Assembly (NCBI RefSeq): GCF_022012395.1
Contig: NZ_JAKLTQ010000018.1
Span: forward strand, 1-64,000
Reading direction: 5' to 3'
From: Arthrobacter hankyongi
Lineage (GTDB): Bacteria; Actinomycetota; Actinomycetes; Actinomycetales; Micrococcaceae
Length of the DNA stretch: 64,000 nt
Below, in pieces: positions 7,477-43,370 of the stretch. Each line of letters opens with the position of its first letter. The stretch's first letter is position 1. A model generated the notes under the pieces. That model worked only from the letters and a program-made list of their open reading frames with translations, was not told the origin of the DNA and did no database searches. The position numbers and the translations under genes were made by a program.

Positions 7477-7483
7477 CTCTACC

Positions 7484-13989: not shown

Positions 13990-14046
13990 CCACTTTCCCA
14001 TCCACCGCAGTTCCCAAGAGAAATCCCTACAGAAAGAAGAAACATC

Positions 14047-16382: not shown

Positions 16383-16475
16383 GGGTCCGTAGTGGATCCC
16401 GTGGAGAAATCCGTGATGACCACCGATGCACAGTGCAAGTGACGCAATCCACACTGAGAGGGAAGCGTTGTAGAT
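16383..16475 (+). promoter_or_regulatory. Dispersed structured leader, copy A
   Basis: One of four copies of a conserved leader. Hairpin 1 is ATCCGTG-ATGAC-CACCGAT at 16409-16427 (one mismatch). The conserved GTGACGCAAT follows, then a second small stem around the purine loop GAGAGGGA (16451-16468). It is followed 28 bases later by a truncated flavin reductase ORF that has its own ribosome-binding site. Confidence 0.6.
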
Positions 16476-16503
16476 CCTGAATCTGAAACTGTCGGAGGCT
16501 TTT

Positions 16504-16584
16504 ATGAATACCGCAACCCTAGATAACCGTGAATTTCATTCAGCCCTGAATTGTTTCGCTACTGGCGTTGCCGCGCTGGCCTAA
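16504..16584 (+). pseudogene. Flavin reductase N-terminal fragment
   Basis: A 26-codon ORF (MNTATLDNREFHSALNCFAT, then GVAALA) that ends in a stop. The pattern of helix plus FATGVAALA matches the start of flavin reductase-like proteins (compare ALAQFPAGVVALSA in the intact gene at 34301). It has a good GGAGG site and the same leader as the remnant at 34481. The rest of the gene is gone. Confidence 0.6.
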
Positions 16585-16609
16585 TCCCCGGGAAAGGAAG
16601 CTGTTCACC

Positions 16610-16885
16610 ATGCCGACTCAGACAACCGAGCATTTGGAAGTCCTCGTTAACGACCCTACCCGGCTTTACGAATTGCTTGACGATGCAGAGACCGCGCTCC
16701 GGCGGGTAGCCATGACCCAACGGTCTGCTGGCATCCTGGTCACCCGCCATAATCCTGGCCGGTACACGCTTGCGCTCAGCGGAACGGTCCCCTTTGGGGA
16801 AACCCACGAGCGGATACTCTCGTACCCGTCGGCGGACGGCCGCACCGCCCGTCGATCGATGGCCGCACCGCCGGTCGAAAGTTAG
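16610..16885 (+). CDS. Small hypothetical protein upstream of zwf, 91 aa
   Basis: Starts MPTQTTEHLEVLVNDPTRLY with a GGAAAGGAAG site. The central part (LLDDAETALRRVAMTQRSAG, ILVTRHNPGRYTLALSGTVP) has the look of a compact soluble protein; the tail is Ser- and Ala-rich. It ends 9 bases before zwf and is probably co-transcribed with it. No family recognised. Confidence 0.6.
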   Translation: MPTQTTEHLEVLVNDPTRLYELLDDAETALRRVAMTQRSAGILVTRHNPGRYTLALSGTVPFGETHERILSYPSADGRTARRSMAAPPVES

Positions 16886-16894
16886 AAGGCAACG

Positions 16895-18451
16895 ATGTCT
16901 GTTACTTACGTTGATGCGAGTGTGAGGTCCGGGAATAATCCGCTCCGGGATCCGCGCGACCGCCGGCTGTCCCGGGTAGCGGGCCCGTCATCCATGGTCC
17001 TGTTCGGCGTCACCGGGGATCTCTCGCGCAAGAAGCTTATGCCCGCCGTGTATGACCTGGCCAACCGCGGCCTGCTGCCGCCGAGCTTCGCCTTGGTCGG
17101 CTTCGCCCGGCGACGTTGGGAGGACGAGGATTTTGCCGCCGAGGTCAAGGCCTCGGTCATGCAGTATGCCCGCACCCCGTTCCGCGAGGAAGTGTGGGAG
17201 CAGCTCTCCCAGGGCATCCGCTTTGTGCAGGGCGAATTCGGCGACGACCAGGCCTTCGCCCAGCTCAAGCAGATTATCGACGAACTGGACGAACAGCGCG
17301 GCACCCAGGGCAACCATGCCTTCTACCTGTCCATTCCGCCCAAGGCCTTCGAGCAGGTCTGCCGGCAGCTGTCCAAGCACGGCCTGGCACAGGCCGAGGG
17401 GGACAAGTGGCGGCGGGTGGTGATCGAGAAGCCGTTCGGGCACGACCTTGAGTCCGCCAGGCAGCTGAACGAAATCGTGGAGTCGGTGTTCCCCGCGGAC
17501 GCGGTATTCCGCATCGACCATTACCTGGGCAAGGAGACGGTGCAGAACATCCTGGCCCTGCGCTTCGCGAACCAGCTGTTCGAGCCGTTGTGGAATGCCA
17601 ATTACGTGGACCATGTGCAGATCACCATGGCCGAGGACATCGGCACCGGCGGGCGGGCCGGGTATTACGACGGCGTCGGTGCGGCCCGGGACGTGATCCA
17701 GAACCATCTGCTGCAGCTGCTGGCCCTGACCGCGATGGAGGAGCCGATCTCCTTCAACGCCGAGGACCTGAGGGCCGAGAAGGAGAAGGTGCTGGCCGCC
17801 GTCAAACTCCCCGAGGATTTGTCCACCCATTCGGCGCGCGGGCAGTTCACCGGCGGCTGGCAGGGCGGGGAAAAGGTCAAGGGCTACCTGGAGGAAGAGG
17901 GCATCCCGGCCGATTCCACCACCGAAACGTTCGCCGCGATCCGTCTGGACATCCATACCCGGCGCTGGGCCGGGGTGCCGTTCTACCTGCGGGCCGGCAA
18001 GCGGCTCGGACGCCGGGTGACGGAGATCGCCGTCGTGCTCAAGCGCGCACCCAACCTGCTCTTCCGCGACCATGGGGACGATGAGGCCGGGCAGAACGCC
18101 GTCGTGATCCGGGTCCAGCCGGACGAGGGGGCGACCATCCGGTTCGGCTCCAAGGTGCCGGGCACCCAGATGGAGGTCCGGGACGTGACCATGGACTTCG
18201 GCTACGGCCATGCCTTTACCGAATCCAGCCCGGAGGCCTACGAGCGGCTGATCCTGGACGTGCTGCTGGGCGAGCCGCCGCTGTTCCCGCGCCACCAGGA
18301 AGTGGAGCTGTCCTGGAAAATCCTTGACCCATTCGAAAAATACTGGGCGCAGCTGACAGAACAGCCCGAACCCTACGCCCCAGGAAGCTGGGGCCCGGCC
18401 TCGGCCGATGAGCTGCTGGCCCGCGACGGACGAACCTGGAGAAGGCCATGA
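16895..18451 (+). CDS. zwf: Glucose-6-phosphate 1-dehydrogenase
   Basis: A 518-residue enzyme that oxidises glucose 6-phosphate to 6-phosphogluconolactone. The Rossmann motif is FGVTGDLSRKKLMPAVYDL, the signature with the catalytic His and Lys is RIDHYLGKE, and EKPFGHDL precedes it. In a methylotroph it serves the dissimilatory RuMP cycle, giving NAD(P)H from formaldehyde carbon. The opcA start overlaps its stop by 4 bases, so translation is coupled. The small upstream ORF ends 9 bases before. Confidence 0.95.
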   Translation: MSVTYVDASVRSGNNPLRDPRDRRLSRVAGPSSMVLFGVTGDLSRKKLMPAVYDLANRGLLPPSFALVGFARRRWEDEDFAAEVKASVMQYARTPFREEVWEQLSQGIRFVQGEFGDDQAFAQLKQIIDELDEQRGTQGNHAFYLSIPPKAFEQVCRQLSKHGLAQAEGDKWRRVVIEKPFGHDLESARQLNEIVESVFPADAVFRIDHYLGKETVQNILALRFANQLFEPLWNANYVDHVQITMAEDIGTGGRAGYYDGVGAARDVIQNHLLQLLALTAMEEPISFNAEDLRAEKEKVLAAVKLPEDLSTHSARGQFTGGWQGGEKVKGYLEEEGIPADSTTETFAAIRLDIHTRRWAGVPFYLRAGKRLGRRVTEIAVVLKRAPNLLFRDHGDDEAGQNAVVIRVQPDEGATIRFGSKVPGTQMEVRDVTMDFGYGHAFTESSPEAYERLILDVLLGEPPLFPRHQEVELSWKILDPFEKYWAQLTEQPEPYAPGSWGPASADELLARDGRTWRRP

Positions 18452-19494
18452 TTGTAGATCTACCGGACACCACCACCTCCAATGTTTCCAAAAAGCTCAT
18501 GGCCCTGCGCGAGCAGGGTGGCGTGATCGCCTTGAGCCGGGTCCTCACCCTCGTGGTGGTCACCAAATCCGGGCTCGAGGAAGAAGCCATCGAGGCAGCC
18601 AACGAGGCCAGCCGGGAACATCCCTGCCGGATCATCGTGCTGGCCAACGCCGGAGCCGACGCCCCGGACCGGCTGGACGCCCAGATCCGCGTGGGCGGAG
18701 ACGCCGGCGCGTCCGAGGTCATCGTGCTGCGCGGCTACGGCCAGCTCGCGCACGAAAGCGAATCCCTCGTGGCCGCGCTGCTGCTGCCGGACGCACCCAT
18801 CGTGGCCTGGTGGCCCCATGCAGCCCCAAAAAACGCCTCCGAAACCTCCGTTGGCCGCATCGCGCACCGCCGGATCACCGACTCCGCCAACGAACCGGAC
18901 CCGCAGGCGGCCTTGGACAATATCCGCCGCACGTACAAAGCAGGCGACACCGATCTGGCTTGGACCCGCCTGACTAACTGGCGGATCCAGCTGGCCACGG
19001 CCCTGGACCAGGCGAGCTGCTCACCGGTCACCGCCGTCACCGTCGAAGGCGCCTCCGACTCCCCCAGTACGGTCCTGTTGGCGGCCTGGCTGAACCGGAC
19101 CTTGGACGCGCCCGTCACCGTCGTCACGGACACCGCCGGGACCGGCATCCGGGGCGTCCGGCTGTCTCTGGCCTCCGGTGACATCCGGCTGTTCCGGCCC
19201 GCATTTACCGTTGCTGAGCTGACTCAACCCGGGCAGCCGCTGCAGCGGATCTCCCTGCCGCGCCGCACCCTGCAGGACTGCCTGGCGGAGGAACTGCGCC
19301 GGCTGGATCCCGATGAGGTCTTCGGTGAAACCGTTCGCAGCCTTGGTACTTCCAGACTGGAAACCCGCATGCCGTTGACCGGCATTGAGGAGCCGGGACG
19401 TAACCGGGACCGTGTGTCACCGATCGCTGTTGCGCTATCGGACGACGGTGCACTGGTCGGTTTTGAAAGCAGCGGGCACCTTGTCCGGAGATGA
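18448..19494 (+). CDS. opcA: Glucose-6-phosphate dehydrogenase assembly protein OpcA
   Basis: A 348-residue OpcA homolog, known as an assembly or allosteric factor for Zwf in actinobacteria and cyanobacteria. It starts MIVDLPDTTTSNVSKKLMAL, and carries LLLPDAPIVAWWPHAAP and VTAVTVEGASDSPSTVLLAAWL as typical conserved segments. It follows zwf with a 4-base overlap. It is slightly longer than many homologs. Confidence 0.92.
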   Translation: MIVDLPDTTTSNVSKKLMALREQGGVIALSRVLTLVVVTKSGLEEEAIEAANEASREHPCRIIVLANAGADAPDRLDAQIRVGGDAGASEVIVLRGYGQLAHESESLVAALLLPDAPIVAWWPHAAPKNASETSVGRIAHRRITDSANEPDPQAALDNIRRTYKAGDTDLAWTRLTNWRIQLATALDQASCSPVTAVTVEGASDSPSTVLLAAWLNRTLDAPVTVVTDTAGTGIRGVRLSLASGDIRLFRPAFTVAELTQPGQPLQRISLPRRTLQDCLAEELRRLDPDEVFGETVRSLGTSRLETRMPLTGIEEPGRNRDRVSPIAVALSDDGALVGFESSGHLVRR

Positions 19495-19617
19495 AATTAC
19501 CGTCACCTTCACCTGCTGATGCCGGCACCGTTGCCAAACCAACAGGCAGAAAGCAGCAAGCGCCTCAGTTCAGAACCATGCCATTAGTCTCAATCAAACC
19601 AGGAAAGAGTGAACGTT

Positions 19618-20538
19618 ATGCACATCGGCCTCATTGGACTTGGGAAAATGGGCTTCAATATGCGCCAGCGCCTGCGTAATGCGGGCATCGAGGTTACCGG
19701 CTACGACCGCAATCCCGAGTTGACGGACGTCGAGTCGATCGAAGCGTTGGTAGCGGCAGTTCCGGCACCGCGGATTATCTGGGTGATGGTTCCTGCAGGG
19801 GAAATCACGGATGCGGTGATCACGGAACTGTCCGGAAGGCTCGCAGCCGGAGACCTGGTGATCGACGGCGGGAACTCCAAGTTCACGGAGGACCAGAAAC
19901 ATGAGGTACTGCTCGCCGCGAAGAACATCGGTTTTGTCGACGTCGGCGTCTCTGGAGGTGTGTGGGGTCTGGCCAATGGTTATGGATTGATGGTCGGGGG
20001 AAAGCCGGGCCGCATCCAGGCCGCCATGCCACTGTTCGATGCACTGCGTCCCGAAGGTCCGCGGGAAGAAAGCTTCGTTCATGTCGGCGACGTCGGTGCC
20101 GGCCACTACGCAAAAATGGTGCACAACGGCGTCGAATACGCCTTGATGCAGGCCTATGCCGAGGGATACGAACTGCTCGAAGCCAAAGACATCATCAAGG
20201 ATGTCCACGGGACGTTCCAAGCCTGGCAGAAGGGCACTGTCGTCCGTTCGTGGCTGCTCGATCTCATGGTCAAGGCGCTTGAAGAAGATCCGGGCCTAAG
20301 CCAGATCGCCGGATACGTCGAGGATTCGGGCGAAGGCCGCTGGACGGTGGAAGAAGCCATCGCCAACGCCGTCCCTGCACCCGCCATTACCGCCTCCATC
20401 TTCGCCAGGTTCGTTTCGCGCCAGGACGACTCCCCTGCCATGAAAATGGTCTCGGCCCTGCGTAACCAGTTCGGCGGCCATGCTGTCCGCGCTCCCGGAG
20501 CTTCGGTTGTTGACCTCCCATCGCTGGTGACCTCCTGA
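19618..20538 (+). CDS. gnd: 6-phosphogluconate dehydrogenase, short (GndA/YqeC) type
   Basis: A 306-residue decarboxylating 6-phosphogluconate dehydrogenase that returns ribulose 5-phosphate to the cycle and releases CO2. The Rossmann motif is IGLIGLGKMGFNMRQRL, the substrate motif IDGGNSKFTED and SGGVWGLANGYGLMVGG, and the catalytic region GAGHYAKMVHNGVEYALMQA. The Asp in GYDRNPE at the end of the second strand favours NAD+ over NADP+ (inference). The ATG at 19618 has AGGAAAGAG; a GTG nine bases upstream is less likely. It overlaps the next gene by one base. Confidence 0.93.
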   Translation: MHIGLIGLGKMGFNMRQRLRNAGIEVTGYDRNPELTDVESIEALVAAVPAPRIIWVMVPAGEITDAVITELSGRLAAGDLVIDGGNSKFTEDQKHEVLLAAKNIGFVDVGVSGGVWGLANGYGLMVGGKPGRIQAAMPLFDALRPEGPREESFVHVGDVGAGHYAKMVHNGVEYALMQAYAEGYELLEAKDIIKDVHGTFQAWQKGTVVRSWLLDLMVKALEEDPGLSQIAGYVEDSGEGRWTVEEAIANAVPAPAITASIFARFVSRQDDSPAMKMVSALRNQFGGHAVRAPGASVVDLPSLVTS

Positions 20539-21056
20539 TGGGCGTCAGGATCGAGAACCTGGTTACTTCGGGCACGTTTTCGCTCGACGGCGGCACCTGG
20601 GACGTAAACAACAACGTCTGGATCGTGGGCGACGACGATGAATGCGTGATCATCGACTCCCCGCACGACGCGGCCGCGATCATCGGCCAGGTCAGAGGGC
20701 GGAAAGTCCTGGCAATCCTGCTGACGCACGCGCACAACGACCACATTGGTGCTGCCCGCGAAGTCGCCAAGGCCGTGGAAGCGCCGATTTACCTGAACCC
20801 AGAGGACCTGGTCCTCTGGGAGCAGGTTTACCCCGACGCGGGCCCGGACCGGCACCATGCCGACGGCGACGAGTTCCAGGTCGGCGGGGCCACACTGCGG
20901 GCAATCCACACGCCCGGTCACTCCCCCGGCTCCACCTGCTTCTACCTGGAAGGCGAGGACACGGTATTCACCGGCGACACGCTCTTCAACGGCGGCCACG
21001 GCGACAACACCACCATCGGGGCCGAGCAGGAAACACTGGCGAACATATCGCAGTAG
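20538..21056 (+). CDS. Metallo-beta-lactamase fold hydrolase with internal deletion
   Basis: A 172-residue metallo-hydrolase with the zinc motif LTHAHNDHIGA and the later HTPGHSPGS and FTGDTLFNGG. It resembles the MBL protein next to mycothiol-dependent formaldehyde dehydrogenase in many actinobacteria (candidate S-formylmycothiol hydrolase), whose N-terminus also reads like ENLVTSGTFSLDGGTWDV. Those relatives are about 205-210 residues and have a PGATGRS... helix and THTGHGD after FQGG. Here FNGG runs straight into HGDNTTIGAE, so some 35-40 residues are missing in frame. The remaining zinc ligands are present. Activity is uncertain. It is the last gene of the zwf operon. Confidence 0.8.
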   Translation: MGVRIENLVTSGTFSLDGGTWDVNNNVWIVGDDDECVIIDSPHDAAAIIGQVRGRKVLAILLTHAHNDHIGAAREVAKAVEAPIYLNPEDLVLWEQVYPDAGPDRHHADGDEFQVGGATLRAIHTPGHSPGSTCFYLEGEDTVFTGDTLFNGGHGDNTTIGAEQETLANISQ

Positions 21057-21093
21057 CAGGACCAGAAGCAGGCTCAGCCGATAGACAGAATGT

Positions 21094-21134
21094 CCGGCAA
21101 AGGCGCGCCAGGACCCCTGGCGCGCCTTTGCCGG
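21094..21134 (+). terminator. Strong hairpin after the zwf operon
   Basis: A perfect 19-bp stem (CCGGCAAAGGCGCGCCAGG with its complement) around a three-base loop, 38 bases after the metallo-hydrolase stop. No U-tract. Confidence 0.85.
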
Positions 21135-21178
21135 CGAATCAAGCACGCAGGACGCGTGCCGCTAAGGAAGTTGGACCA

Positions 21179-23536
<2,358 letters not shown>

Positions 23537-23548
23537 AACGAACAGCAA

Positions 23549-23580
23549 AACGGCCCGCTTCCGAAAGGAGGCGGGCCGTT
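23549..23580 (+). terminator. Hairpin after the molybdopterin oxidoreductase
   Basis: AACGGCCCGC pairs with GCGGGCCGTT around a stem extension TTCC/GGAG and a GAAA tetraloop, 12 bases after the stop. Confidence 0.8.
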
Positions 23581-23702
23581 CTTGCGATGCCGGTCGGTCA
23601 GCCGCCGGTTCCATTCCCGAGCCAGCCGGCGGCTCGAGGGCGTGCTGATGCTGTCGCTCGAAGGGACACGGACTGTCCCGGTGCAGCCCCGCCTTTACCC
23701 CG

Positions 23703-25082: not shown

Positions 25083-25158
25083 GGTCCTTCCTCTCCTCTC
25101 TCGTCTTCCTCGTGAACTTCTCCCTGCCTCTTGAACTCCGTGATCTGAAGCGTGCTCT

Positions 25159-25360
25159 CAAGCAGTCCGGATTGGGAGTGAGGTGTCCCAACAGAATCAC
25201 GTTGTTATGCAGGCAGGTCAATCCGTACTGGCTCCCGTAGAGAAATCCGTGATGACCACGGATGCACAGTGCCAGTGACGCAATTCACACTGGAAGGGAA
25301 GTGTTGTAGCCCCAGGTGCCCAGCCTGCGCCTTGGCCCTCGTGGAAGGGGCACGCCGAGC
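25159..25360 (+). promoter_or_regulatory. Dispersed structured leader, copy B
   Basis: The first 60 bases match copy C (AGCAGTCC-GATTGGG, then GCAGGTCAATCCGTA). Hairpin 1 is ATCCGTG-ATGAC-CACGGAT at 25245-25263. GTGACGCAAT follows, then hairpin 2 ACACT / AGTGT around the loop GGAAGGGA (25287-25304). A third possible stem AGGTGC / GCGCCT lies at about 25315-25335 and has a pairing-preserving change relative to copy C. The 46-codon ORF at 25396 follows. Confidence 0.65.
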
Positions 25361-25395
25361 CTCGAACCGCAGGGGTTCCCGGAAGGAGTACTGAG

Positions 25396-25536
25396 ATGAC
25401 CCGCGAAGAAGCCTACGCAAATTGCCCCGCCGACTCATATGTCGAGTTCTACTGCGGTGAATGGCTGATCATTCCATTTGTGCCGGTCACACAGCCGGCG
25501 TTCGGCGGTGCGCCCATGCTGGCTGCCGCCCATTGA
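25396..25536 (+). CDS. Small hypothetical protein, 46 aa
   Basis: MTREEAYANCPADSYVEFYC begins a 46-residue ORF that has a good GGAAGGAG site and follows leader copy B. The amphipathic helix and the WLIIPFVPV segment do not resemble a family known to me. It may be the regulated product of the leader. Confidence 0.45.
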   Translation: MTREEAYANCPADSYVEFYCGEWLIIPFVPVTQPAFGGAPMLAAAH

Positions 25537-25700
25537 GGGCCGCGGCGCAGAGCCGGAAGCGGTTCCCCGCGCCATGGCCGGCAGGATGGTCTGCCCCGTT
25601 TTCCCGACGGACGGCCCTATCCGGCTGAGCATGCAAAACCACCCGTTGCGCATCGGGGCTGACGCGGGCTTGCACCGGAACGCAGAACCGTATCCTGGCC

Positions 25701-27539
25701 TCAGGTCGGTTCCTGTGACGACGGCGTGACCGCCAGGCTCAGCCGGTCCACGCCGTGCATTGCGTCAGCGGCCCGGACCAAGGCTAGATGGGAAAAGGCT
25801 TGGGGGAAGTTGCCGGCCATCCGCTGTTCCTCCAGCGCGAATTCCTCGCTCAGCAGGCCCAGTTCATTGGAGAAGCCGATGAGCTTATCCATGAGGGCCC
25901 CGGCATCGTCCCGGCGGTTGGTGCGGGCGTACTGCTCGACGAGCCAAAACGAGCAGGCAAGGAACGGATGTTCGCCCGGTTCCAGTCCGTCGATACCGGT
26001 TTCCGTCCGGTAGCGCAGCAACAGGCCTTCGTCGGTCAGCAACTCGCGCTCCAGCTGCGCCACCGTTGACAGCATCCCTTCATCGTCATAGGCGAGAAAA
26101 CCGACCTGCGGTATCGCGAGCAATGCGGCGTCCACCTGCCGCCCCCCGTAGGTCTGGGTGAAGGAGTTCAGCTCGGTGTTGAAGCCTCGGTCCAGGATTT
26201 CCGCCCGCAACCGGTCCCGCACCTGCGTCCAGTGCCCGGCCGGGCCCGCAAGCCCATGGTCGCGGACCGCCCGGACGCCGCAGTCGAAGGCGGCTCACAT
26301 CATCACCCTTGAATGCGTAAAGTATTGGGCCTGGCCGCGGATCTCCCACAGGCCAAAGTCCTTGTCCTCGAGGTGCTCCTCTACAAATCCCAGCAGGGCC
26401 CGCTGGAGAGCCCAGGAGAACGGGTCCTCCTTGCCCCCGGCCAGGCGCAGCCGTTCCAGTGCCACCATCACCTCGCCCACCACGTCTGCCTGATACTGCA
26501 CGGCGGCGGCGTTGCCGATCCGCACCGGCCGGGCGCCCTGGTAACCGGGAAGATGTTCAAGCACCCGCTCCGGCAGCTCACGTTCGCCGGCCACCCCGTA
26601 CATGATCTGGATGTCCTTCGGGTCCCCGGCGATGGCCCGCAGCAGCCAGTCACGCCATTTGAGCGCCTCCGTCCCATAGCCGTGCGTCAACATCGACTCC
26701 AGCGTCAGCGCGGCATCACGAAGCCAGCAAAAACGGTAATCCCAATTGCGCGAGCCGCCGAAGGCCTCCGGCAGTGAGGTCGTCGGTGCGGCCACGATGC
26801 CGCCGGTCTCATAGTGCGTCAGTCCGCGAAGCACCAGCAGGGAGCGCTTGACGGCAGCCCCGTAAATTCCGTCCTGGCGGCAGTGGCTGCCCCAGCGGGT
26901 CCAGTACTCCGCGGCTTCGGCCAAGGCAGCATCAACGTCGGGCGGCGGCGGGGCCGTGCGGTAGGACGGAAACCACGTCAGGGCGAAGTCCTCCTGTCCA
27001 CCGGCCGAAACCACGAATTCCCCTTCGTACCTGTCGCCGTGGGGCTGAGGAAGATGACGCCCGTGCAGCACCCAGGCGTCAGGTCCGGCCATGGCCAGCA
27101 GTGCTTCGCCCCCACCGCGCGGATCGCTGCTGCGGGTGCGGCTCATCCACGGTGTGAGCGCCCCGTACTGGGGGCGGATGATCAGTTCCTGACGCACGGC
27201 CACCGTCCCGCTGAGTCCAGTGACCCGCCGAAGCAGGGATGACCGGCCGGGAGCGACGGGCATGAAGTCCGTGACGAGGATCTGCCCGCCGCCCGGATCC
27301 TGCCAAACCGTTTCGAGGATGAACGTTGACTCGGCATACCTGCGGCTGACAACGACGGCGTCTGCCTGGACGGGAGCCAGCAACCACCGGCCGTGATCCT
27401 CCGCGCCGAGCAGCGAGGCAAAGATGGACGGTGAATCAAAGCGGGGCAGGCAAAGCCAATCAACACTGCCCCGCCGCGAAATGAGAGGTCCGGTGGAGAG
27501 GTCCGACAGGAGCGCATAGTCCTCAATGGGCGGCCGCAT
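25701..27539 (-). pseudogene. GH15 glucoamylase/trehalase-like gene with in-frame stop
   Basis: One continuous frame of 613 codons encodes a glycoside hydrolase family 15 protein (N-terminal MRPPIEDYALLSDLSTGPLI, RRGSVDWLCLPRFDSPSIFA; catalytic-domain GGSRNWDYRFCWLRDAALTL and GLLSEEFALEEQRMAGNFPQ, which contains one catalytic Glu; C-terminal AFSHLALVRAA). It is interrupted by a single TGA at 26295-26297 after FTHSRVMM, where the frame continues as AAFDCGVRAVRDHGLAGP. The position normally reads Trp in this motif (MMWAAFD), so a TGG to TGA change is the simplest explanation. Such enzymes act on trehalose or maltodextrins in actinobacteria. A sequencing error is possible. Confidence 0.8.
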
Positions 27540-27785
27540 GGATCTACCTAAGCACATACCTGCTCCGCAGGTCAGTCTGCGTGTGTTTCCCCGCTTCTCC
27601 CAGCCACCTGGACCACCGCCCGACAATTCGTGCGGTGTCTTAGGCTCCCGGCCGGCTGCTGACCCACGTTCCTGGAGGCTGTGCCGGGCAGAGAGAATCT
27701 CAGAGATACGTCCGGGACCGGGTGCGATCTGGTCCGGAGGGACGGGGGACAGTGCCTGTCATGGACGGGCCCTGGCGGACTGCTG
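27540..27785. other. Short intergenic stretch
   Basis: No gene is seen between the GH15 start and leader copy C. It must carry the promoter of the GH15 gene on the minus strand. Confidence 0.4.
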
Positions 27786-28010
27786 AAGCAGTCCAGATTG
27801 GGGCCAGTTTCCCTACAGAATGACGGGTGTACGCATGCAGGTCAATCCGTATTAGCCTCCGTAGAGAAATCCGTGACGATTACGGATGCACAGCCTCAGT
27901 GACGCACCCCACACTAAGACATCGGTGACGCAACCCCCATTGAGAGGGAAGTGTTGTAGCTCTAGGTGCCGGGCTTGCACCTGGAGCTCTCGTGGAAATT
28001 GAAGCACTCG
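27786..28010 (+). promoter_or_regulatory. Dispersed structured leader, copy C
   Basis: It shares the start of copy B, then hairpin 1 as ATCCGTG-ACGAT-TACGGAT (27869-27887), where a G-T pair replaces G-C. The GTGACGCA unit occurs twice (around 27899 and 27926), so this copy has an internal duplication. Hairpin 2 has loop GAGAGGGA (27942-27949). A third stem AGCTCTAGGTGC / GCACCTGGAGCT follows at about 27958-27988. The AmiS/UreI gene starts 160 bases later. Confidence 0.65.
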
Positions 28011-28169
28011 CTGTCATGGGCGATGTTACGTGACCAGCCAGTCCGGCTGGACGCCTACCCAACCAGACCTTAACCACACCCTAATCAGACACGGTCCCTT
28101 AACCAGACCTCAAACAACAGGGCTTTAATCCGGCACGGTCTGAAGCCCAACCAGAAAGGAACTGAATAG

Positions 28170-28790
28170 ATGGTAAGTGCAGGTTTGCTGCTCATCGGCG
28201 CAGTGCTCTTTGTTAACGGCATGGCCTTCCTAGGGCACGCCGATCCTCGAAACTCAGCGATCATCAACATCTTTGTTGGCCTCTTGACGACGGCCATTCC
28301 CTTCTACCTCGTGGCGACGGCCAGCGGACCTGATGACATTCTCGGCGTCAGCCCCGTGTTTCTGTTTGGGCTGACCTACCTCTGGGCAGGAATTACCAAC
28401 CTCACCGGACATGACGCAACCGGATTTGGCTGGTACTGCATATGGGTAGCGGCCATCACCGTCGTCTTCTCCGCTGTGTCACTTTTTCACTTCGACGATC
28501 CCAAACAGGCCATTATCTGGCTCAACTGGGGTGTCCTCTGGGGACTCTTTTGGAGCGTGCTGGCTCGCGGCCGGGCAAATCACGGCCTGGCTGCAGGCTC
28601 GGCAGCAATCGTCATGTCCGTGTGGACGTGCACGGTTCCCGCCATCCTTCAGATGCTTGGGCTGTGGGCCGACCTGCCCGTGTGGCCGGTCATCGTTGCG
28701 ACAGTGTTGACACCCTTTGCCATTCGCGCGCTCTTCAGGTTCTCGTCTTCGTCGCTAACCCAAGAGCCTCAGGCAGCGATGGTCTCGTGA
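28170..28790 (+). CDS. AmiS/UreI-family urea/short-chain amide channel
   Basis: A 206-residue membrane protein with six or seven hydrophobic helices. It begins MVSAGLLLIGAVLFVNGMAF with GHADPRNSAIINIFVGLL close behind, and carries LTYLWAGITNLTGHDATGFG and FFxxDxPxxAxxWLxWG-like FDDPKQAIIWLNWGVLWGLF, which are the family signatures. These proteins pass urea or amides such as acetamide and formamide. Usually an amidase or urease lies beside them; here none is found within 1.7 kb downstream. Start at 28170 with AAAGGAAC. It follows leader copy C. Confidence 0.88.
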   Translation: MVSAGLLLIGAVLFVNGMAFLGHADPRNSAIINIFVGLLTTAIPFYLVATASGPDDILGVSPVFLFGLTYLWAGITNLTGHDATGFGWYCIWVAAITVVFSAVSLFHFDDPKQAIIWLNWGVLWGLFWSVLARGRANHGLAAGSAAIVMSVWTCTVPAILQMLGLWADLPVWPVIVATVLTPFAIRALFRFSSSSLTQEPQAAMVS

Positions 28791-28919
28791 CGGTGCAGCC
28801 AACCCCTAAACGGCAGGCAGCAGAACCGTGCCGGGGCGCACGTGACCGTCCGTGACAGGTTGCCTTCGGCGCTCCTTCCGGCCTTACGGGCCGGCTTCTC
28901 ACGAAGGCTCCCGGGGGTT

Positions 28920-28960
28920 GGAAGCCCACGGCGGCGTTTCCCGCGCCGCCGTGGGCTTCC
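28920..28960 (+). terminator. Strong hairpin after the AmiS/UreI gene
   Basis: GGAAGCCCACGGCGGCG pairs perfectly with its complement (17 bp) around a seven-base loop. A second smaller GC-rich stem lies upstream at about 28887-28905. Confidence 0.85.
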
Positions 28961-30474
28961 CGTGGTCTTTCCGTGGTCTTTCCGCATGACGGGCAGCCTC
29001 CGCCCGGCGGAGCATTCCCTTGGCACCAGCCACGGTACAGGCTCCCATCAGGGTGATGCGAGGTTGAAAACCTGCGCCCTTTCCACTCGCTGGAGGCGCC
29101 TTCGCAGAGTCTGACGGGGTGGGGTTTCAGGCCAGGATCCGGCTCGGGCGGCCATGCAATCCGGTGCTGCCGGGCCACCGACGGCCTGGCCTCCCGCCGG
29201 TTCACCGCATGCATTCCCTCCACGGACGCCCCGGTGCGCCGGCGGGCCAAAGCTCCCAAGGATCCGGCCGCGTGCTTCTCCTGGGACGGCCAGACCGTGG
29301 ACACGGCCACCACGGGCACCCGGGCCGCGGTACCATCCCGGACCGGCATGCGCGCCGGGGATCGTGTTCCCCGTCCTGACCGCGGCCGTACCTGCAGGAC
29401 AAAACGGCCGTCAGTCCGGACAAACCCGCCCAGCCGCCGACACCGGCTCTTCAAGGTTTGCGGGGAAACGACATGGTGGCGCAGACGCCGAAACGGTCCG
29501 GGCTGTTTCGGCGGCACCTGATGCTGCCAGCATGATCTTCAACCGGCCCGATTTTCGCGCCCATCACACCCTGATGCTGGCAGGACTGCGACGGATCGCC
29601 GTCGAATCGGCGTACCCGCCGGCGCCCCCGTGTGCGGGGCGGTCACGTCCCGGCGCAAGGGCCGGTGCCGTCGAGCTGGTCCGGACCAGGCTGCGCTGGT
29701 TCCCTGACAGGGGTGCCCTGCGTCCGCAAATCCTTCAGCAAGAATCCGGCGCAGGCGCCGTGCTTCGCGCGCTCAATCATGCGGATGCAGCAGTGAACGG
29801 CTGTCCGCGGCCATCACTCCGGCAGGGTGGTCGAGGCCGCTTGGGCGTACGGGGTCTCCCTGGTGGCTGGTTTAGGACGCCCGGCATCAGCGAAGACCGC
29901 TTCCGGCCGGGACGGCACCGGGTCGGCGACTAGATGTTTCAGCGTCCGCTGGCCTGGCGTCCTGGGGTGCAGGTGGTCGCAATCGACCGGTCAGCCGCGT
30001 TTCGCAAGGCGGTGCGCAATGTGGCTGCCGCGCGCCGCCGTATCCGTTGATGCCTTCCGCTTGGTCAAGCCTGCCAACGAGGCTTAACCGGGGCCAACAT
30101 ACGATCCCAGAACCTTAACGCAGGGAAGGTACCGGCAGGCGAATCCAGATGAGGAAGGGGCGGCTTCAGCCGAGCCAGCCGTCCTTCTGACGCCCCTTCA
30201 ATAAAAGTGTCATCGACGCCGTGCCGTCCGTAGGAATCGCAAGCAGACAGATTCGGATCCACAACGGCCAGGATGGCATCCTGGCCGACCGAGTATGGTT
30301 TCCGGCCGCTGTGCCCTACCAACGCATCGAGAGGTGGATGGCAAAGGGGGGCATCACATGCCACGCTGGCCCGCCCCGACCCGCCAGGTAGGACGGGCTT
30401 GGCTGGACAGCTCCTCCTACTGCATCCATGTCCTGAACTGCTTACTCATCTCCATCACGGGGTAGTTCGCAACT
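28961..30474. other. 1.5 kb without a supported gene
   Basis: Open frames here have neither ribosome-binding sites nor recognisable families, and their composition is that of shadow or decayed sequence (very Arg- and Pro-rich). It may be old insertion-sequence or amidase-operon debris, but I cannot name a remnant. Confidence 0.5.
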
Positions 30475-31539
30475 TCAGCCTATCGACGCGTGCTCGGCAA
30501 GCTCCGGCATGAAGGCGGCGGGCGCTTCGGGGTGGGCGCCCCACCAGGCAGCGCAGGCCGCCCGCCAGGTGTCGAGATCGCTGCGGTCACCGGCATAAAG
30601 GACTGTGCCGTTTTCGACCGTAGCGCTCGAGCGGCCGCAGGCGTAAGTTCCGCCGACAGAAGTTACCTGCGGATACGGCTTGTACAAATCGCCCAGCTTA
30701 GCGAGGAGGTAGCGCGGCCGTTCGGCTGTCCGGGCGGCCAGGATCGACTCCACGGTATCGACGCCGGTCAGCACCACGGCGGTGTCCATACCGGCATTGT
30801 TGCCGCCAAGGATGTCCGTGTCGAGACGGTCTCCGACGACAAGTGGATTTTCCGCCTGCAGGCTCTGCGCCGCCGTCGTAAAGAGCGCGGCCTCGGGCTT
30901 GCCCGCCACCAGCGGGGTCGCCCCCGTGGCTGCTTGGACAGCTGCCACCAGTGAGCCGTTTCCCGGCGCTTTCCCCTCGGGGCGGGGCAAGGTCATGTCG
31001 GTATTGGTGGCCACCCAGAATGCACCTGCTGCTATCGCATATGATGCCTGAGCCAAATCCTGCCAGCCCAACCCAGGATCAAACCCCTGGATAACAGCGT
31101 CGGGCCGCTGGTCTGCGGAGTCGACGGGCACAAAACCCAGGAGTTCGACCTCCTCGACCAATGTCCGGCTGCCGGTTACTAGGACCTTGGCCCCCGGCGC
31201 CACGTGGCGTGCCAACAGCGCAGCGCCGGCACGGGCGGAGCCAAACACCTGGTCGGCGCAGGCCGGGGCGCCCAGTTCCCGAAGATGGGCTGCAACCTGT
31301 TCGGAAGACCGGGACGCGTTGTTGGTGACGTAGCCCAGTCTGATACCGGCAGCCGGCAACCTGTCGAGGGCCTCAGTCGCCCCTTCTATGGCACCAGCGC
31401 CGACATAAACCACCCCGTCCAGGTCGCAGAGCAGGGCGTCGTAGCCATCTATCAACGTCGGTTCAGTCTTCGTCACCGGGTTGCTTAACGACCCGTGTCC
31501 CTGGATCCGGGTCTCCGATTTCATGTTGGTCTTCATCAT
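30475..31539 (-). CDS. HAD-IIA family sugar-phosphatase-like hydrolase
   Basis: A 354-residue HAD hydrolase of the NagD/p-nitrophenylphosphatase type. Motif I is LLCDLDGVVYVGAGAIEGA, motif II GYVTNNASRS, motif III Lys in LVAGKPEAALF and motif IV VVGDRLDTDILGGNNAGMDT. The C-terminal 80 residues (from about 275) exceed the standard domain. Start ATG at 31539 with GAGGAAG. It may be a phosphoglycolate or glycerol phosphate phosphatase; the real substrate is not visible. It stands alone on the minus strand. Confidence 0.82.
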   Translation of the reverse strand: MMKTNMKSETRIQGHGSLSNPVTKTEPTLIDGYDALLCDLDGVVYVGAGAIEGATEALDRLPAAGIRLGYVTNNASRSSEQVAAHLRELGAPACADQVFGSARAGAALLARHVAPGAKVLVTGSRTLVEEVELLGFVPVDSADQRPDAVIQGFDPGLGWQDLAQASYAIAAGAFWVATNTDMTLPRPEGKAPGNGSLVAAVQAATGATPLVAGKPEAALFTTAAQSLQAENPLVVGDRLDTDILGGNNAGMDTAVVLTGVDTVESILAARTAERPRYLLAKLGDLYKPYPQVTSVGGTYACGRSSATVENGTVLYAGDRSDLDTWRAACAAWWGAHPEAPAAFMPELAEHASIG

Positions 31540-31680
31540 GGAGCGCTTCCTCTGAAGGTACGGTTCAGCTTCTTTGTCCACAGCGGCGGCGCCGGCGAGG
31601 CCGGACGCCTCATTACCTGTCGTGGCTATGAGAAGTACCTCTCACGAATACAGGGGTAGCGTCGGCCCGGCTTCTCCGCA

Positions 31681-32910
31681 TCATTTGCGCCCGCCCGCGA
31701 GCAGATGCGACGCAGGGTCGCGTCTCAGCAGCCACATGGCAAGGCACCCAAACAGTGGGCCCACCGCGAGCATCGAGAACCCGATACCCCACCCCAAATG
31801 GCTGACCACGAAGTCCATGGATTGGATTGTGACAAAGGTTAATGCGAAGCCCATGCAGATTTGGGTGGTCAGCATTGTGCCCACCGACTCTGCAGGTGAC
31901 AGCTCTACCACGCATGCTGAGAACTGGGCAGAATCCGCAATGATCGATATACCCCAAACCACGGCCACGATGAGTATGAGCAGAGGCGGCCCGCCAAAGA
32001 GCCATCCAATCGAAAGCGCGCATGTGCCACTGATGGCCATTGACCAAATGGTGACAGCCGTACGACCATGTCGGTCGGCCAAACGCCCACCGAACAGTGC
32101 ACCCAGGGCGCCCGCGGCAATCACAAGGAATGTGGCTGCAGGTGCAAGCCCTGGTTGGTCGACTCCCCGGGCGTCGAAGGACGCCCGGAAGAACATCCCA
32201 ATCCAGGCCCACATTGCATACAATTCCCACATATGGCCCAGATACCCTAGGTTCGCCAGGCGCACCGGTCGTTTGGCCAAAGCGGCTTTCAGCACGCGCG
32301 GGTCGAACTCTTGCGCCCGCGTAAACGCCGGCCCCAGCTTTACAAATCCGACCACGGCCGCTGCCGACAGTGCAGCAGCCGCTGAGACGGCATAGACAAG
32401 TTTCCAGTTCCAGGCTTCACCAATGGTGAAGAGGTGGGGTAGGGCAGATCCAACTGTGAGTGCTCCCACCAGTAGACCGACAAGTTTCCCCAGGTCATTG
32501 GCAGCCCAACTGGCCACCATGCGCATACCCACGGGGTAAATCCCTGCCAAGGCCATTCCCGTAACGAACCTGAAAATCAGTGCTTCGTTCCCCGCTGGAG
32601 ACACCACAAGCAGGGCTGCCGTCGTAGCAGCCGCCGACACCGCCGATGCGGCAAATAACTTCCTGGGATCAAATCTGTCCGCCAAATTGAGTAATGCACT
32701 GAGCAGAGCGCCAATCACGAAACCGACCTGTAGCGCGCTGGTCATCGCAGCCATTCGTGTGCCGGAAATGTGTTCGAGGACCGCGATGCTCGGCAACGCC
32801 GCAGTCGAGGCAAACCAGACAGACAAGGTCAGGACCTGGCAAAGCAGGATCAGGCCAATTGATCTGGTCCGCCCTCGTGTAATCGGCGGTGATCCATATT
32901 TGAGTGTCAT
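31681..32910 (-). CDS. MFS transporter
   Basis: A 409-residue major facilitator with 12 hydrophobic segments. LADRFDPRKLFAASAV and the middle-loop GGRLADRHGRTAVTIWSMAI match the A-like motif in both halves. Start at 32910 with AAAGGATCC. It lies between the HAD gene and an empty stretch. The direction of transport and substrate are not readable; uptake of an organosulfur or C1 compound would fit the neighbourhood but is speculation. Confidence 0.82.
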   Translation of the reverse strand: MTLKYGSPPITRGRTRSIGLILLCQVLTLSVWFASTAALPSIAVLEHISGTRMAAMTSALQVGFVIGALLSALLNLADRFDPRKLFAASAVSAAATTAALLVVSPAGNEALIFRFVTGMALAGIYPVGMRMVASWAANDLGKLVGLLVGALTVGSALPHLFTIGEAWNWKLVYAVSAAAALSAAAVVGFVKLGPAFTRAQEFDPRVLKAALAKRPVRLANLGYLGHMWELYAMWAWIGMFFRASFDARGVDQPGLAPAATFLVIAAGALGALFGGRLADRHGRTAVTIWSMAISGTCALSIGWLFGGPPLLILIVAVVWGISIIADSAQFSACVVELSPAESVGTMLTTQICMGFALTFVTIQSMDFVVSHLGWGIGFSMLAVGPLFGCLAMWLLRRDPASHLLAGGRK

Positions 32911-33189
32911 TCGGATCCTTTAGTCATTCGACGGGAGACTTGCGCCTGGGCTTTCAGATCCCGTCAGGGTGCTAAAACTGTTCGTCCTTGAACAGGCATC
33001 AGTGCCGCAACTACCGCATGCCGCGCAGGCACACTGTTACCTGCCGCCAGCTCTAATTCACGGACATCGAATGCAACCGTTTAGGTGGCTCCCGGAGCGT
33101 GGTGATGTTTGCCCACTCCGGGACTGCTGCTCATAACCCGTCCTGTACTTGCATCGAGCATCATCGGATGTGCAGCCTTAGCAGGAGGG

Positions 33190-33783
33190 TTAGGCGGCTG
33201 CCTGCTCATCACCGGCCAGCGCGGGTTGGACTTTCGAGCTGCCCGGCATGCCGGCCCTGGTTACTTTTTGCAGCGGCCTCAACGAACTGGAAGCGACGGC
33301 ATCCAGTATCGGATCGAGCCAATCAACGCGACCGTCGAATCGTCCGATCTTCGGCAGCTTGACCCACCTATGCATCGAGAACCCTGGTCCAAGTGCCAAC
33401 CGACGGTGATCGGTCTCGACAACATAAACGGAGTGCGCCGTAGATTGCGGACCACGGAATACCTCGACAGCCGGACCAGGCTGAATCGTGAGGATGTCAC
33501 GAACCGTCAGGCCGGCTCCTCGGTGGAGCAGATGAATGCATTGCAGCAATCCATCTTCCAAGGCGGAACAACTGTCCGTCCGGGTCGCTGACAAGAGTTG
33601 CCACGGCATGCTCGCGGATGAACTATGCCCGGTCTTCTTGAAGAGGCCCACACGGCCCCTCCAAGTGAGCAGAATATCGAGCTGCCATACGCTCGTCTTC
33701 GAGCCGCCAACTTGCGTCGATAGCTGACCAGCAGGCCGGCTGCGCCGGCCTTGGTCAGACACTATGGCCTGTGCGTTCATCAC
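33190..33783 (-). CDS. Possible hypothetical protein after the flavin reductase
   Basis: A 197-codon open frame starting 20 bases after the flavin reductase stop. Parts look protein-like (DILTIQPGPAVEVFRGPQST, AHSVYVVETDHRRLALGPGF, GRFDGRVDWLDPILDAV), but the N-terminal third is Ser- and Arg-rich and no convincing ribosome-binding site is present. I recognise no family; it may be a degraded gene. The rest of 32911-33803 holds nothing I can support. Confidence 0.3.
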   Translation of the reverse strand: MMNAQAIVSDQGRRSRPAGQLSTQVGGSKTSVWQLDILLTWRGRVGLFKKTGHSSSASMPWQLLSATRTDSCSALEDGLLQCIHLLHRGAGLTVRDILTIQPGPAVEVFRGPQSTAHSVYVVETDHRRLALGPGFSMHRWVKLPKIGRFDGRVDWLDPILDAVASSSLRPLQKVTRAGMPGSSKVQPALAGDEQAAA

Positions 33784-33803
33784 TTTGCTCTTGCCCGCAG
33801 GCG

Positions 33804-34301
33804 CTAGCGGGGGTCCAACCGGCTAAATGACGAACGATGGAACACCAGGGGCATGTGCGAACTGTGGGCTTGGAGGTCTTCAATCTGCAGCAGAATGAGA
33901 ATGTGATCGCCGGCATCGACCTCACGGTAGATGGAGCAAGTAAGCCAAAGAGGCGACCCGGAAATATAGAGGTCATCCCGCTCGCCGGAAGTAGTCTCTA
34001 TTCCTTTGAAACGCTCGTCCGGATTGCGTGACGCAAGTTGCCGGCAGACTGGGTTGTGATCTTCACCCATAACCGACACACCGATGAGAGGAGCGTCCTT
34101 GATCTTGGGCCACGTGGATGAGGATTTCTGGACGGAGAACAGAACGAGCGGCGGTTCTTCCGAGATTCCGACAGAGAATGACGAAGCGACGAGAACCTGC
34201 CGTTCATCCTGAACCCTCGCCGACAGGGCTACCACGCCTGCAGGAAACTGAGCGAGAGCGTCACGGAGGCGCCGGGTTTCCATAGCAACTTGTGTAGTCA
34301 T
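33804..34301 (-). CDS. Flavin reductase-like protein
   Basis: A 165-residue flavin reductase of the FMN-binding split-barrel type, which provides reduced FMN to two-component monooxygenases. The family start is RLRDALAQFPAGVVALSARV, then VASSFSVGISEEPPLVLFSV, KDAPLIGVSVMGEDHN and SGSPLWLTCSIYREVDAGDH. The ATG at 34301 has GAAAGGAAG. It is transcribed away from the DmoA-like gene and is the obvious partner for it (a DmoB-type role, inferred). Leader copy D and a ruined second flavin reductase start lie directly upstream. Confidence 0.85.
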   Translation of the reverse strand: MTTQVAMETRRLRDALAQFPAGVVALSARVQDERQVLVASSFSVGISEEPPLVLFSVQKSSSTWPKIKDAPLIGVSVMGEDHNPVCRQLASRNPDERFKGIETTSGERDDLYISGSPLWLTCSIYREVDAGDHILILLQIEDLQAHSSHMPLVFHRSSFSRLDPR

Positions 34302-34419
34302 GGTTCTTCCTTTCAATGAATTGGGTAAGGACGGGCCCCACGCAGCTGCCCATTTATCGAGTGATGGGCAACCAACCCATGAGGGGTGTTGTCAACGGTG
34401 CCGCCAAGCGCGTCGATGT

Positions 34420-34481
34420 CAGTCGCTGAATAACTCAGGGTTGAACGAAATTGACGGCTATCCGAGGTTGCGGGTGTTCAT
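34420..34481 (-). pseudogene. Decayed start of a flavin reductase gene
   Basis: Read on the minus strand from 34481, the sequence closely follows the fragment at 16504 (ATGAACACC-CGCAACC ... CCGTCAATTTCGTTCA), with one extra base that makes the frame end after MNTRNLG. So the same gene start was joined to the same leader here and has decayed. Confidence 0.55.
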
Positions 34482-34504
34482 CAGAGCCTCCAGCAGTTCC
34501 AGAT

Positions 34505-34640
34505 TGAGGATCAACAACACCTCCCCCTCAGTGTGGGTTGCATCACTATCTCTGTGCATCCGTGATCATCACGGATTTCTCCACGGGGACCGGTACGGAT
34601 TGGCCTGCATACGTACAACCGTGATTTTGTGCGGGACACG
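34505..34640 (-). promoter_or_regulatory. Dispersed structured leader, copy D
   Basis: It is on the minus strand. Hairpin 1 is the perfect dyad ATCCGTGATGATCACGGAT (34576-34558). It also has the TATGCAGG-CAATCCGTA upstream block, GTGATGCAAC and hairpin 2 around GAGGGGGA. The following 30 bases match copy A (GATCCT-AATCT-GAACT). It precedes the decayed and the intact flavin reductase genes. Confidence 0.65.
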
Positions 34641-35250: not shown

Positions 35251-35497
35251 AGTCTCCTTCCTTCCCGGCCTCAGAGAAGGTCATGACGCCGCGGGACAAC
35301 AGGCCGGCCCCGGCGGTGCCCACGCTTGGACGAAACATGCCTGAGCCGCCGGCGTGCCGAGCCGAGTGCGCCGTTACCGGCACGGCCTTTTTGCCGCCGG
35401 CCTTGCCTGTTGGTGGGACACCACCCATGGAGTAGGGGTGAATCCCCGTGGTGAATTCAGTGTTGAGCACGGATGTCGGGCAGCGCCGGTTGAACAT

Positions 35498-43267: not shown

Positions 43268-43370
43268 CATCCACTGGTTTGTGACATACTCCACACCTCC
43301 CACCACACATTTAGGTAAGCTCAGCCTGACGCTTTGCCTGTACACCTTCTCCCCAGGATTGAGCCGAAAC

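What the first reader, a model, noticed from the sequence alone, without database searches (positions are those of the whole stretch)
16383..34640. Four copies of a conserved, possibly structured leader of unknown type
Copies at 16383-16475 (+), 25159-25360 (+), 27786-28010 (+) and 34505-34640 (-) share the order: AATCCGTA block, hairpin ATCCGTG-(A[TC]GA[TC])-CACGGAT, GTGACGCAA, and a second stem around a purine loop close to GAGAGGGA. Bases in the stems change in pairing-compatible ways: G-C to G-T in hairpin 1 of copy C, T-A to T-G in hairpin 2 of copy D, and a third stem AGGTGC/GCACCT versus AGGTGC/GCGCCT in copies C and B. The first AATCCGTA could compete with the second ATCCGT for ACGGAT, which would allow two alternative folds. 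Copies precede flavin reductase starts (A, D), a 46-codon ORF (B) and an amide channel (C). It could be a cis-regulatory RNA, or a promoter with a protein dyad site.
Basis: partly seen in the sequence, partly recalled or inferred. Interest (0 to 1): 0.85.

Follow-up and report, generated by a model that had tools for sequence, protein, structure and literature searches.

The report
Shared DNA operator in methylotrophy cluster
The repeated 'leader' is most likely a shared DNA control element, a row of protein-binding sites in promoters, placed before genes for one-carbon metabolism in a few Arthrobacter-type soil bacteria; the sequence evidence does not support a structured RNA.

Summary
The four copies are real, and a fifth lies at 35445-35473. 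All array-pattern hits in the 5.19 Mb genome fall in this window. Related elements occur in seven further genomes: 28 sites listed. The core is not an RNA hairpin but TCCGT-like half-sites at exact 12-bp steps, three direct and one inverted, ungapped in 24 of 24 aligned rows. None of the three proposed pairings covaries beyond shuffles, and 11 of 24 rows have an unpaired position in hairpin 1. A second box is a CRP/GlxR-like palindrome, found at 24 of 28 sites: 10-11 bp past the array at 19, and 33-35 bp past it at five of six monooxygenase sites. Sites precede a dimethyl-sulfide-monooxygenase-like unit, flavin reductase, hxlB/hxlA, a small ORF and membrane proteins. The same 5 of 206 genomes of one genus hold both the element and the cluster's large LuxR-type ATPase regulator. 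Best reading: a composite operator of a methylotrophy regulon, probably bound by that regulator plus a CRP-family protein; the binders are inferred.

The parts
16386..16426 (+). Copy A array: TCCGT / CCCGT / TCCGT / ACCGA half-sites at 12-bp steps
16438..16453 (+). Copy A CRP/GlxR-like box AGTGACGCAATCCACA
16504..16584 (+). 26-codon remnant resembling the start of a flavin reductase, downstream of copy A
   Evidence: translation; resemblance judged by eye
25222..25262 (+). Copy B array
25274..25289 (+). Copy B CRP/GlxR-like box AGTGACGCAATTCACA
25396..25536 (+). 46-codon conserved small ORF after copy B
27846..27886 (+). Copy C array, about 280 nt upstream of the AmiS/UreI-type channel gene
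27898..27913 (+). Copy C CRP/GlxR-like box AGTGACGCACCCCACA; a partial tandem duplicate of this block follows at 27922-27959
28170..28790 (+). AmiS/UreI family channel gene
34559..34599 (-). Copy D array, upstream of the flavin reductase
34532..34547 (-). Copy D CRP/GlxR-like box AGTGATGCAACCCACA
33804..34316 (-). flavin reductase ORF (Flavin_Reduct domain); likely start codon inside the ORF near 34301
31681..32910 (-). MFS transporter downstream of the flavin reductase
35445..35473 (+).
35912..37321 (+). FMN-dependent monooxygenase, NtaA/DmoA family; best PDB match dimethyl-sulfide monooxygenase
37564..40638 (+). Large LuxR-type regulator ORF (likely start codon at 37600): GerE-type HTH near the N-terminal end, then AAA_16/NACHT ATPase; proposed binder of the array
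   Evidence: binding inferred
13390..14670 (+). hxlB and hxlA (ribulose monophosphate pathway); no array upstream in this genome, but arrays upstream in relatives

Best explanation
Each copy is a composite DNA operator in an activator-dependent promoter. Part 1 is an array of half-sites (consensus YCMGT) at 12-bp intervals, usually three direct and one inverted, read by a DNA-binding protein that binds several times. The likeliest protein is the LuxR-type/ATPase regulator encoded at 37564-40638. Part 2 is a CRP/GlxR-like palindrome, 10-11 bp or 33-35 bp past the array. Together they would switch on a regulon for use of a methylated compound: a DmoA-like FMN monooxygenase, a flavin reductase, transporters or channels, and formaldehyde fixation by HxlA/HxlB. 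The substrate may be dimethyl sulfide or a related compound. SHOWN: the array, its rigid spacing, the palindrome, clustering at these genes, conservation across genera, and lack of RNA covariation. INFERRED: which proteins bind, activation rather than repression, the inducer, and the transcription start.
For: 24 distinct array rows (of 28 sites) align over 48 columns without a gap. Site 2 (NCMGT), site 3 (TCMGT) and site 4 (ACNGA) are present in 24 of 24 each, site 1 (YCMGT) in 17 of 24. The array pattern occurs 4 times in the 5.19 Mb genome, all in this window (copy C misses it by one base), with 0 in the reversed-pattern control; 3 times in MA-N2 and once in G007, in the clusters. A matrix built from the sites scores them at 32-53 bits and nothing else in the nine stretches above 9 bits; one of 20 shuffles reached 11.2. 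The palindrome follows 24 of 28 sites, at two spacings 22-24 bp apart within a genome; its consensus resembles that of GlxR (PMC7999487, passages seen). The same 5 of 206 genomes hold both element and regulator. G007 has the regulator at 41% identity, yet the stretch ISVRTVESHVS is unchanged and it has a matching diverged array. MilO, a LuxR-family activator, binds three 11-bp direct repeats with 2-bp spacers (PMC11784345, passages including part of the abstract seen).
Against: Co-occurrence of regulator and element can come from inheritance of the whole cluster, so it does not prove binding. MA-N2/G896 and G897 carry near-identical copies and are hardly independent. Four of 28 sites, copy E among them, lack a recognised CRP/GlxR-like box, and the relaxed box was not tested against shuffles. 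No sigma-70-like promoter was found at copy D, so the transcription start is unknown and part of the block could be transcribed. Bases between the half-sites (for example GAGAAA) are also conserved, and column information shows no peak at lag 12 (-0.02), so the repeat does not explain all the conservation. In the window, hxlB has no array of its own. Copy A now faces only a remnant and, about 420 nt on, zwf. Short loci around two distant regulators in G271 (31-32% identity) gave no profile match.
Confidence: 0.7

Rival explanations
1. A structured cis-regulatory RNA (riboswitch-like leader) with hairpin 1, a competing upstream strand and hairpin 2.
For: Hairpin 1 can form fully in 13 of 24 rows and pairs far better than its slid versions (91.1% against 16-40%). 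One A-U for G-C double change (G1006_x) and two G-U changes occur at the closing pair 30-36. The blocks are highly conserved and lie upstream of starts.
Against: Hairpin 1: 91.1% of cells paired against 91.4% in shuffles; pair 27-39 is broken in 7 of 24 rows and compensated in none. Competing pairing: no compensated changes. Hairpin 2: 72.7% paired against 73.0% in shuffles over 18 rows. Folding z-scores of 7 copies run from -0.93 to 1.10. No Rfam match at gathering thresholds. At the monooxygenase promoters the array is kept while its surroundings differ.
Confidence: 0.07
2. A protein-binding DNA array, but read by a regulator other than the one at 37564-40638 (for example one encoded elsewhere), the linkage being only shared inheritance.
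For: No binding was tested. The CRP-like box suggests that at least one protein not encoded beside the sites takes part. A conserved ORF between flavin reductase and MFS gene (33190-33783, no Pfam or NCBIfam match) remains unidentified.
Against: Among the proteins followed across the genomes, this is the only one with a recognised DNA-binding domain. Presence and absence agree in 206 of 206 genomes at the cut-offs used. A plasmid copy of the small ORF has no array nearby and no plasmid held has the regulator, but the chromosome of that strain was not searched.
Confidence: 0.18
3. Decaying relics of duplicated promoter-gene segments with no present function.
For: Copies A and D, MA-N2_FR and G722_FR are followed by remnants of a flavin-reductase-like start. 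Copy C has a tandem duplication.
Against: The half-sites stay exact across genera while flanks decay, and sites stand before open genes (flavin reductase, hxlB/hxlA, monooxygenase, small ORF) in several genomes. May hold for copy A alone.
Confidence: 0.05

Closest known systems
MilO operator of milA (LuxR-family activator of mildiomycin synthesis; PMC11784345)
   Same: Three imperfect direct repeats at a fixed short period upstream of an activated gene, read by a LuxR-type protein
   Different: 13-bp period (11-bp repeats with 2-bp spacers) and sequence TGTCNNNCGGT; no inverted fourth half-site or CRP-like box is mentioned in the passages seen
SARP-LAL operators (PimR, PnR2) with three heptameric direct repeats (as cited in PMC11784345; source paper not read)
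   Same: Three short direct repeats proposed to be bound by large ATP-binding regulators
   Different: Other regulator subfamily (SARP-LAL) and pathway (antibiotic synthesis); site sequences not compared
MalT boxes of the maltose regulon (recalled, not from a call)
   Same: Arrays of short sites for an ATPase/LuxR-type activator, combined with CRP sites at some promoters (recalled)
   Different: Different box sequence (recalled); the MalT model carries its HTH at positions 838-890 of 903, this protein at residues 29-81 of 1024
CRP/GlxR binding site TGTGA-N6-TCACA (PMC7999487, passages seen)
   Same: Same palindrome layout and spacing
   Different: First base is A in window copies A-D and the right arm is mostly CCACA; binding untested
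Dimethyl-sulfide monooxygenase DmoA/DmoB
   Same: Monooxygenase is best matched by PDB 6ak1 (E 4.7e-164) and is clustered with a flavin reductase
   Different: Not assayed; linked here to the RuMP pathway and this operator

Membership tests
Structured cis-regulatory RNA | Covarying base pairs in homologs | tested here: not met
   Searches (24 rows; 18 rows): no measure above shuffles for any of the three pairings; the third stem (B and C only) was not tested
Structured cis-regulatory RNA | Match to a described family | tested here: not met
   0 gathering-level matches in the window; (copy A region only): one sub-threshold fungal snoRNA match (20.2 bits, threshold 50)
Structured cis-regulatory RNA | More stable folding than shuffled sequence | tested here: not met
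   z from -0.93 to 1.10 in 7 copies
Structured cis-regulatory RNA | Element is transcribed | not testable with these tools
   needs 5'-end mapping
LuxR/LAL-type direct-repeat operator | Several half-sites at fixed spacing in promoters | tested here: met
   24 of 24 rows ungapped with sites 2-4; site 1 in 17 of 24
LuxR/LAL-type direct-repeat operator | Linked LuxR-type regulator | tested here: met
   regulator gene in the fetched clusters of all eight genomes (in G875 beside one of three sites, the other two being on another contig); same 5 of 206
LuxR/LAL-type direct-repeat operator | The regulator binds the repeats | not testable with these tools
   needs EMSA or footprinting
CRP/GlxR binding site | TGTGA-N6-TCACA palindrome | tested here: met
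   24 of 28 sites match a relaxed form (no shuffle control for that form); window: 5 strict matches, 4 of them in copies A-D, shuffles mean 0.3
CRP/GlxR binding site | Bound by a cAMP-dependent CRP-family protein | not testable with these tools
   no binding data; the genome was not searched for the protein
Dimethyl-sulfide monooxygenase (DmoA) | Closest solved sequence is DmoA; NtaA/DmoA family | tested here: met
   TIGR03860, 526.3 bits, cut-off 279.7; 6ak1
Dimethyl-sulfide monooxygenase (DmoA) | Converts dimethyl sulfide to methanethiol and formaldehyde | not testable with these tools
   needs enzyme assay

The most novel reading that the evidence does not exclude
An undescribed regulatory system for methylated-sulfur or other methylotrophic growth in Arthrobacter relatives: a large ATPase regulator with its LuxR-type DNA-binding domain at the N-terminal end senses a pathway signal, polymerises on 12-bp half-site arrays and acts with a CRP-family protein placed at either of two positions about two helical turns apart, tying substrate oxidation to formaldehyde fixation.
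Probability: 0.45. Interest if true: 0.55.

Novelty: new member of a known kind. Interest (0 to 1): 0.4.

Why it matters
It replaces a suggested new RNA class with a testable operator and names its probable regulator and regulon. If right, it gives an entry point to how Arthrobacter-type soil bacteria switch on the use of methylated (perhaps organosulfur) compounds. A passage of PMC9259527 says that dimethyl sulfide degradation was observed in Arthrobacter without a comprehensive study of the gene responsible, while citing a characterised flavin reductase DmoB of Arthrobacter globiformis. The case also shows how four in-genome copies with a palindrome can look like a covarying RNA until relatives are added.

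Tried and rejected
Rfam at gathering level on the window and with a lax E-value on the copy A region only: nothing credible. Plasmid collection by DNA with copy A: no match. Viral contigs by pattern: none. DNA search of 98 relatives, among them the 9 other genomes of the genus searched again: none; the diverged G007 copy only appeared with a profile. The genome contigs pattern scan gave 6 stretches; only L012 (Arthrobacter sp. MA-N2) is a true relative, and L010, L011, L013, L014 and L015 show no likeness outside the searched letters by eye. A script that read the wrong files printed nothing and was repeated. A first alignment used wrong coordinates for one MA-N2 copy and an interim one had an overlong copy C; both were replaced. 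Of 22 of 395 family genomes with a profile match at E<=0.01, three are strong (G000, G722, G875), G007 is supported by context, and 18 weak ones (E 3e-4 to 0.01) were not inspected. The regulator is rare: 2 of 247 relatives and 2 of 396 phylum genomes at E<=1e-100, own genome counted. Sigma-70 promoter scan at copy D: none. A period-12 signal was not visible in an autocorrelation of column information (-0.02 at lag 12); the periodicity rests on the half-site letters. A repeated block of about 200 nt in G007 looked unrelated to the element by eye. Of 28 sites, 24 entered alignment A6: MAN2_LLM was left out because it lies across two fetched pieces and equals G897_LLM in those 48 bases, and three G897 sites were not added. 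Alignment A7 (hairpin 2) holds 18 of 28: the six monooxygenase sites, G007 and three G897 sites were left out. The G875_sORF row was placed by its core; its half-sites have 12, 11 and 12 bp steps (read). The stop reported in the G895 regulator lies just before the probable start codon, so it does not break the gene. Literature listings (judged by titles and abstract starts) showed no paper on this element; only an open-access library was searched.
Full report
OBSERVATION. The four copies exist at the stated places. A 30-base core matches 4 times in the window and never in 100 dinucleotide shuffles. Searching the whole 5.19 Mb genome by DNA with copy B finds only these four, copy C in two pieces. 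A sequence-only profile made from seven copies revealed a fifth site at 35445-35473 (+), upstream of the monooxygenase unit.

RELATIVES. Ninety-eight relatives searched with DNA had no copy, among them the nine other genomes of the same genus. One pattern scan of the species-genome collection gave six stretches, of which one is real: Arthrobacter sp. MA-N2, L012. That genome has three strong copies within about 15 kb plus one at its monooxygenase. The profile then found strong copies in G722 and G875 among 395 family genomes (18 weak hits not inspected), in 5 of 206 genomes of the genus of G875 (G875, G895, G896, G897, G1006) and, in the genus of G722, in G722 alone of 23. G896 has hits at the same positions as G099 and is most likely the same MA-N2 assembly. 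A diverged copy lies in G007. In all, 28 array sites were listed in nine stretches from eight genomes.

GENES. In these clusters the sites stand upstream of: flavin reductase, followed by an MFS transporter, in window D, MA-N2, G722, G875, G895, G897 and G1006, and flavin reductase alone in G007; the monooxygenase unit in window E, MA-N2, G722, G895, G897 and G1006; hxlB-hxlA in MA-N2, G722 and G897, and hxlA without a detected hxlB in G875 and G895; a small ORF in window B, MA-N2, G875, G897 and G1006; and one-off membrane proteins, an AmiS/UreI channel (window C) and a GPR1/FUN34/YaaH protein (G1006). One further G1006 site (555, -) faces a contig end. The monooxygenase belongs to the NtaA/DmoA family, and its best solved match is dimethyl-sulfide monooxygenase 6ak1 (E 4.7e-164). 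HxlA and HxlB exceed the NCBIfam cut-offs. The window also carries zwf, opcA, a 6-phosphogluconate dehydrogenase, GAPDH, phosphofructokinase, transketolase, transaldolase, an RpiB-type isomerase and pyruvate kinase, that is, a ribulose monophosphate island. That the oxidised substrate is dimethyl sulfide or a related compound is an inference.

WHY DNA AND NOT RNA. Twenty-four distinct sites (of 28) align over 48 columns without a gap. The conserved letters form half-sites at columns 1-5, 13-17, 25-29 (direct) and 37-41 (inverted), a step of exactly 12. Sites 2 (NCMGT), 3 and 4 are in 24 of 24 rows and site 1 in 17 of 24; the five monooxygenase rows lack site 1. MA-N2's small-ORF copy has one more direct half-site 12 bp upstream. 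Bases between half-sites are conserved too, and an autocorrelation of column information has no peak at lag 12. Read as a hairpin, the inverted pair (sites 3 and 4) is fully paired in 13 of 24 rows. Pair 27-39 is broken in 7 of 24 rows in three different ways (C-C, C-T, A-G) and compensated in none; percentage paired, covariation score and the other measures do not exceed shuffles. The competing pairing of the first TCCGT with ACGGA has no compensated change. Hairpin 2 is paired in 72.7% of cells against 73.0% in shuffles over 18 rows, with no double change. Folding of seven copies is ordinary. One double change (A-U for G-C at pair 30-36, in G1006_x) and two G-U pairs are the results that favour the RNA reading.

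THE SECOND BOX. The conserved GTGACGCAA...CACACT block is a palindrome of the form [AT]GTGA-N6-[TC]CACA. The window holds five strict matches, four of them in copies A-D; shuffles average 0.3. Of the 28 sites, 24 have such a box in a relaxed form: 19 at 10-11 bp past the array, and five of the six monooxygenase sites at 33-35 bp, that is 22-24 bp further within a genome, roughly two helical turns. It was not recognised at window E, G007, the G875 small ORF and G1006_x. The relaxed form had no shuffle control. The consensus TGTGA-N6-TCACA is that of GlxR (PMC7999487, passages seen).

REGULATOR. The 1024-residue ORF at 37564-40638 has a GerE/LuxR HTH near its N-terminal end and an AAA_16/NACHT ATPase part. 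Its gene is present in the fetched clusters of all eight genomes (in G875 it lies beside one site, the other two sites being on another contig). Among 206 genomes of one genus exactly the five with the element have it; since whole clusters are inherited together this is linkage, not proof of binding. In G007 the protein is 41% identical overall, 28 of 54 in the HTH, but the stretch ISVRTVESHVS is identical, and that genome has a matching diverged array before its flavin reductase. A plasmid copy of the small ORF in Arthrobacter sp. NicSoilB8 has no array nearby, and no plasmid in that collection has the regulator at E<=1e-50; that strain's chromosome was not searched. Short loci around two distant regulators of G271 gave no profile match either.

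MECHANISM. Most likely several copies of the regulator bind the array when the pathway signal is present, a CRP-family protein binds the palindrome, and together they recruit RNA polymerase to a weak promoter around the conserved GTTGTAG. In G875 and G895 the likely flavin reductase start lies about 76 nt past the palindrome's centre (counted), which leaves room for a transcription start between them. Activation, signal and start site are inferred; repression is not excluded.

KNOWN KINDS. Direct-repeat operators of LuxR-type activators are known; MilO binds three 11-bp repeats with 2-bp spacers (PMC11784345, passages including part of the abstract seen). MalT boxes are recalled; a phrase search for them found nothing. 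This is therefore a new operator and regulon of a known kind. The listings showed no paper on this element; the library is open-access only.

Noticed in passing
window 25396-25536 (+); L024, L062, L079, L081, L088: A small ORF (MTREEAYA..DSYVEFY.G.WL..P...V.QP) is conserved over 36 codons in several genomes with more synonymous than non-synonymous codon differences (14 and 9, window against MA-N2), matches no Pfam family and is unannotated on plasmid NZ_AP024656.1, where it also lies near a GH15 gene.
   Followed up: partly
window 37564-40638: The LuxR-type ATPase regulator carries its HTH near the N-terminal end, whereas the MalT model has it at the C-terminal end.
   Followed up: partly
window 25701-27626 (-): The GH15/trehalase-like gene is split into two ORFs here, while MA-N2 has one 627-codon ORF; it looks like a pseudogene.
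   Followed up: no
window 16504-16584 (+) and about 34400-34481 (-); L016; L059: Remnants of a flavin-reductase-like gene start follow copies A and D and the MA-N2 and G722 flavin reductase sites; an intact flavin reductase follows about 180 nt later in copy D.
   Followed up: partly
window 41708-57336: A run of sugar-phosphate genes (GAPDH, phosphofructokinase, RpiB-type isomerase, transaldolase, transketolase, pyruvate kinase) with a DDE transposase at 44595-46190 suggests an acquired ribulose monophosphate island.
   Followed up: no
window 1749-8431: A second luciferase-like monooxygenase and a SnoaL-flavin reductase fusion lie around a GntR/FCD regulator, with no array site.
   Followed up: no
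L027 9470-9668 and 19657-19854: In G007 a different block of about 200 nt upstream of two ORFs that both start ATGACTGAAC is repeated 10 kb apart (78-88% alike).
   Followed up: partly
MA-N2 (L023/L024) and G897 (L079/L080): hxlB-hxlA is present twice in each of these clusters; one pair has the array upstream, the other lies divergent from the flavin reductase array.
   Followed up: no
window 33190-33783 (-): A 197-codon ORF between flavin reductase and MFS gene has a 64%-identical counterpart in MA-N2 but no Pfam or NCBIfam match.
   Followed up: partly
window 20642-23536: FdhF/YdeP-family molybdopterin oxidoreductase (TIGR01701 above cut-off), possibly linked to one-carbon oxidation.
   Followed up: no
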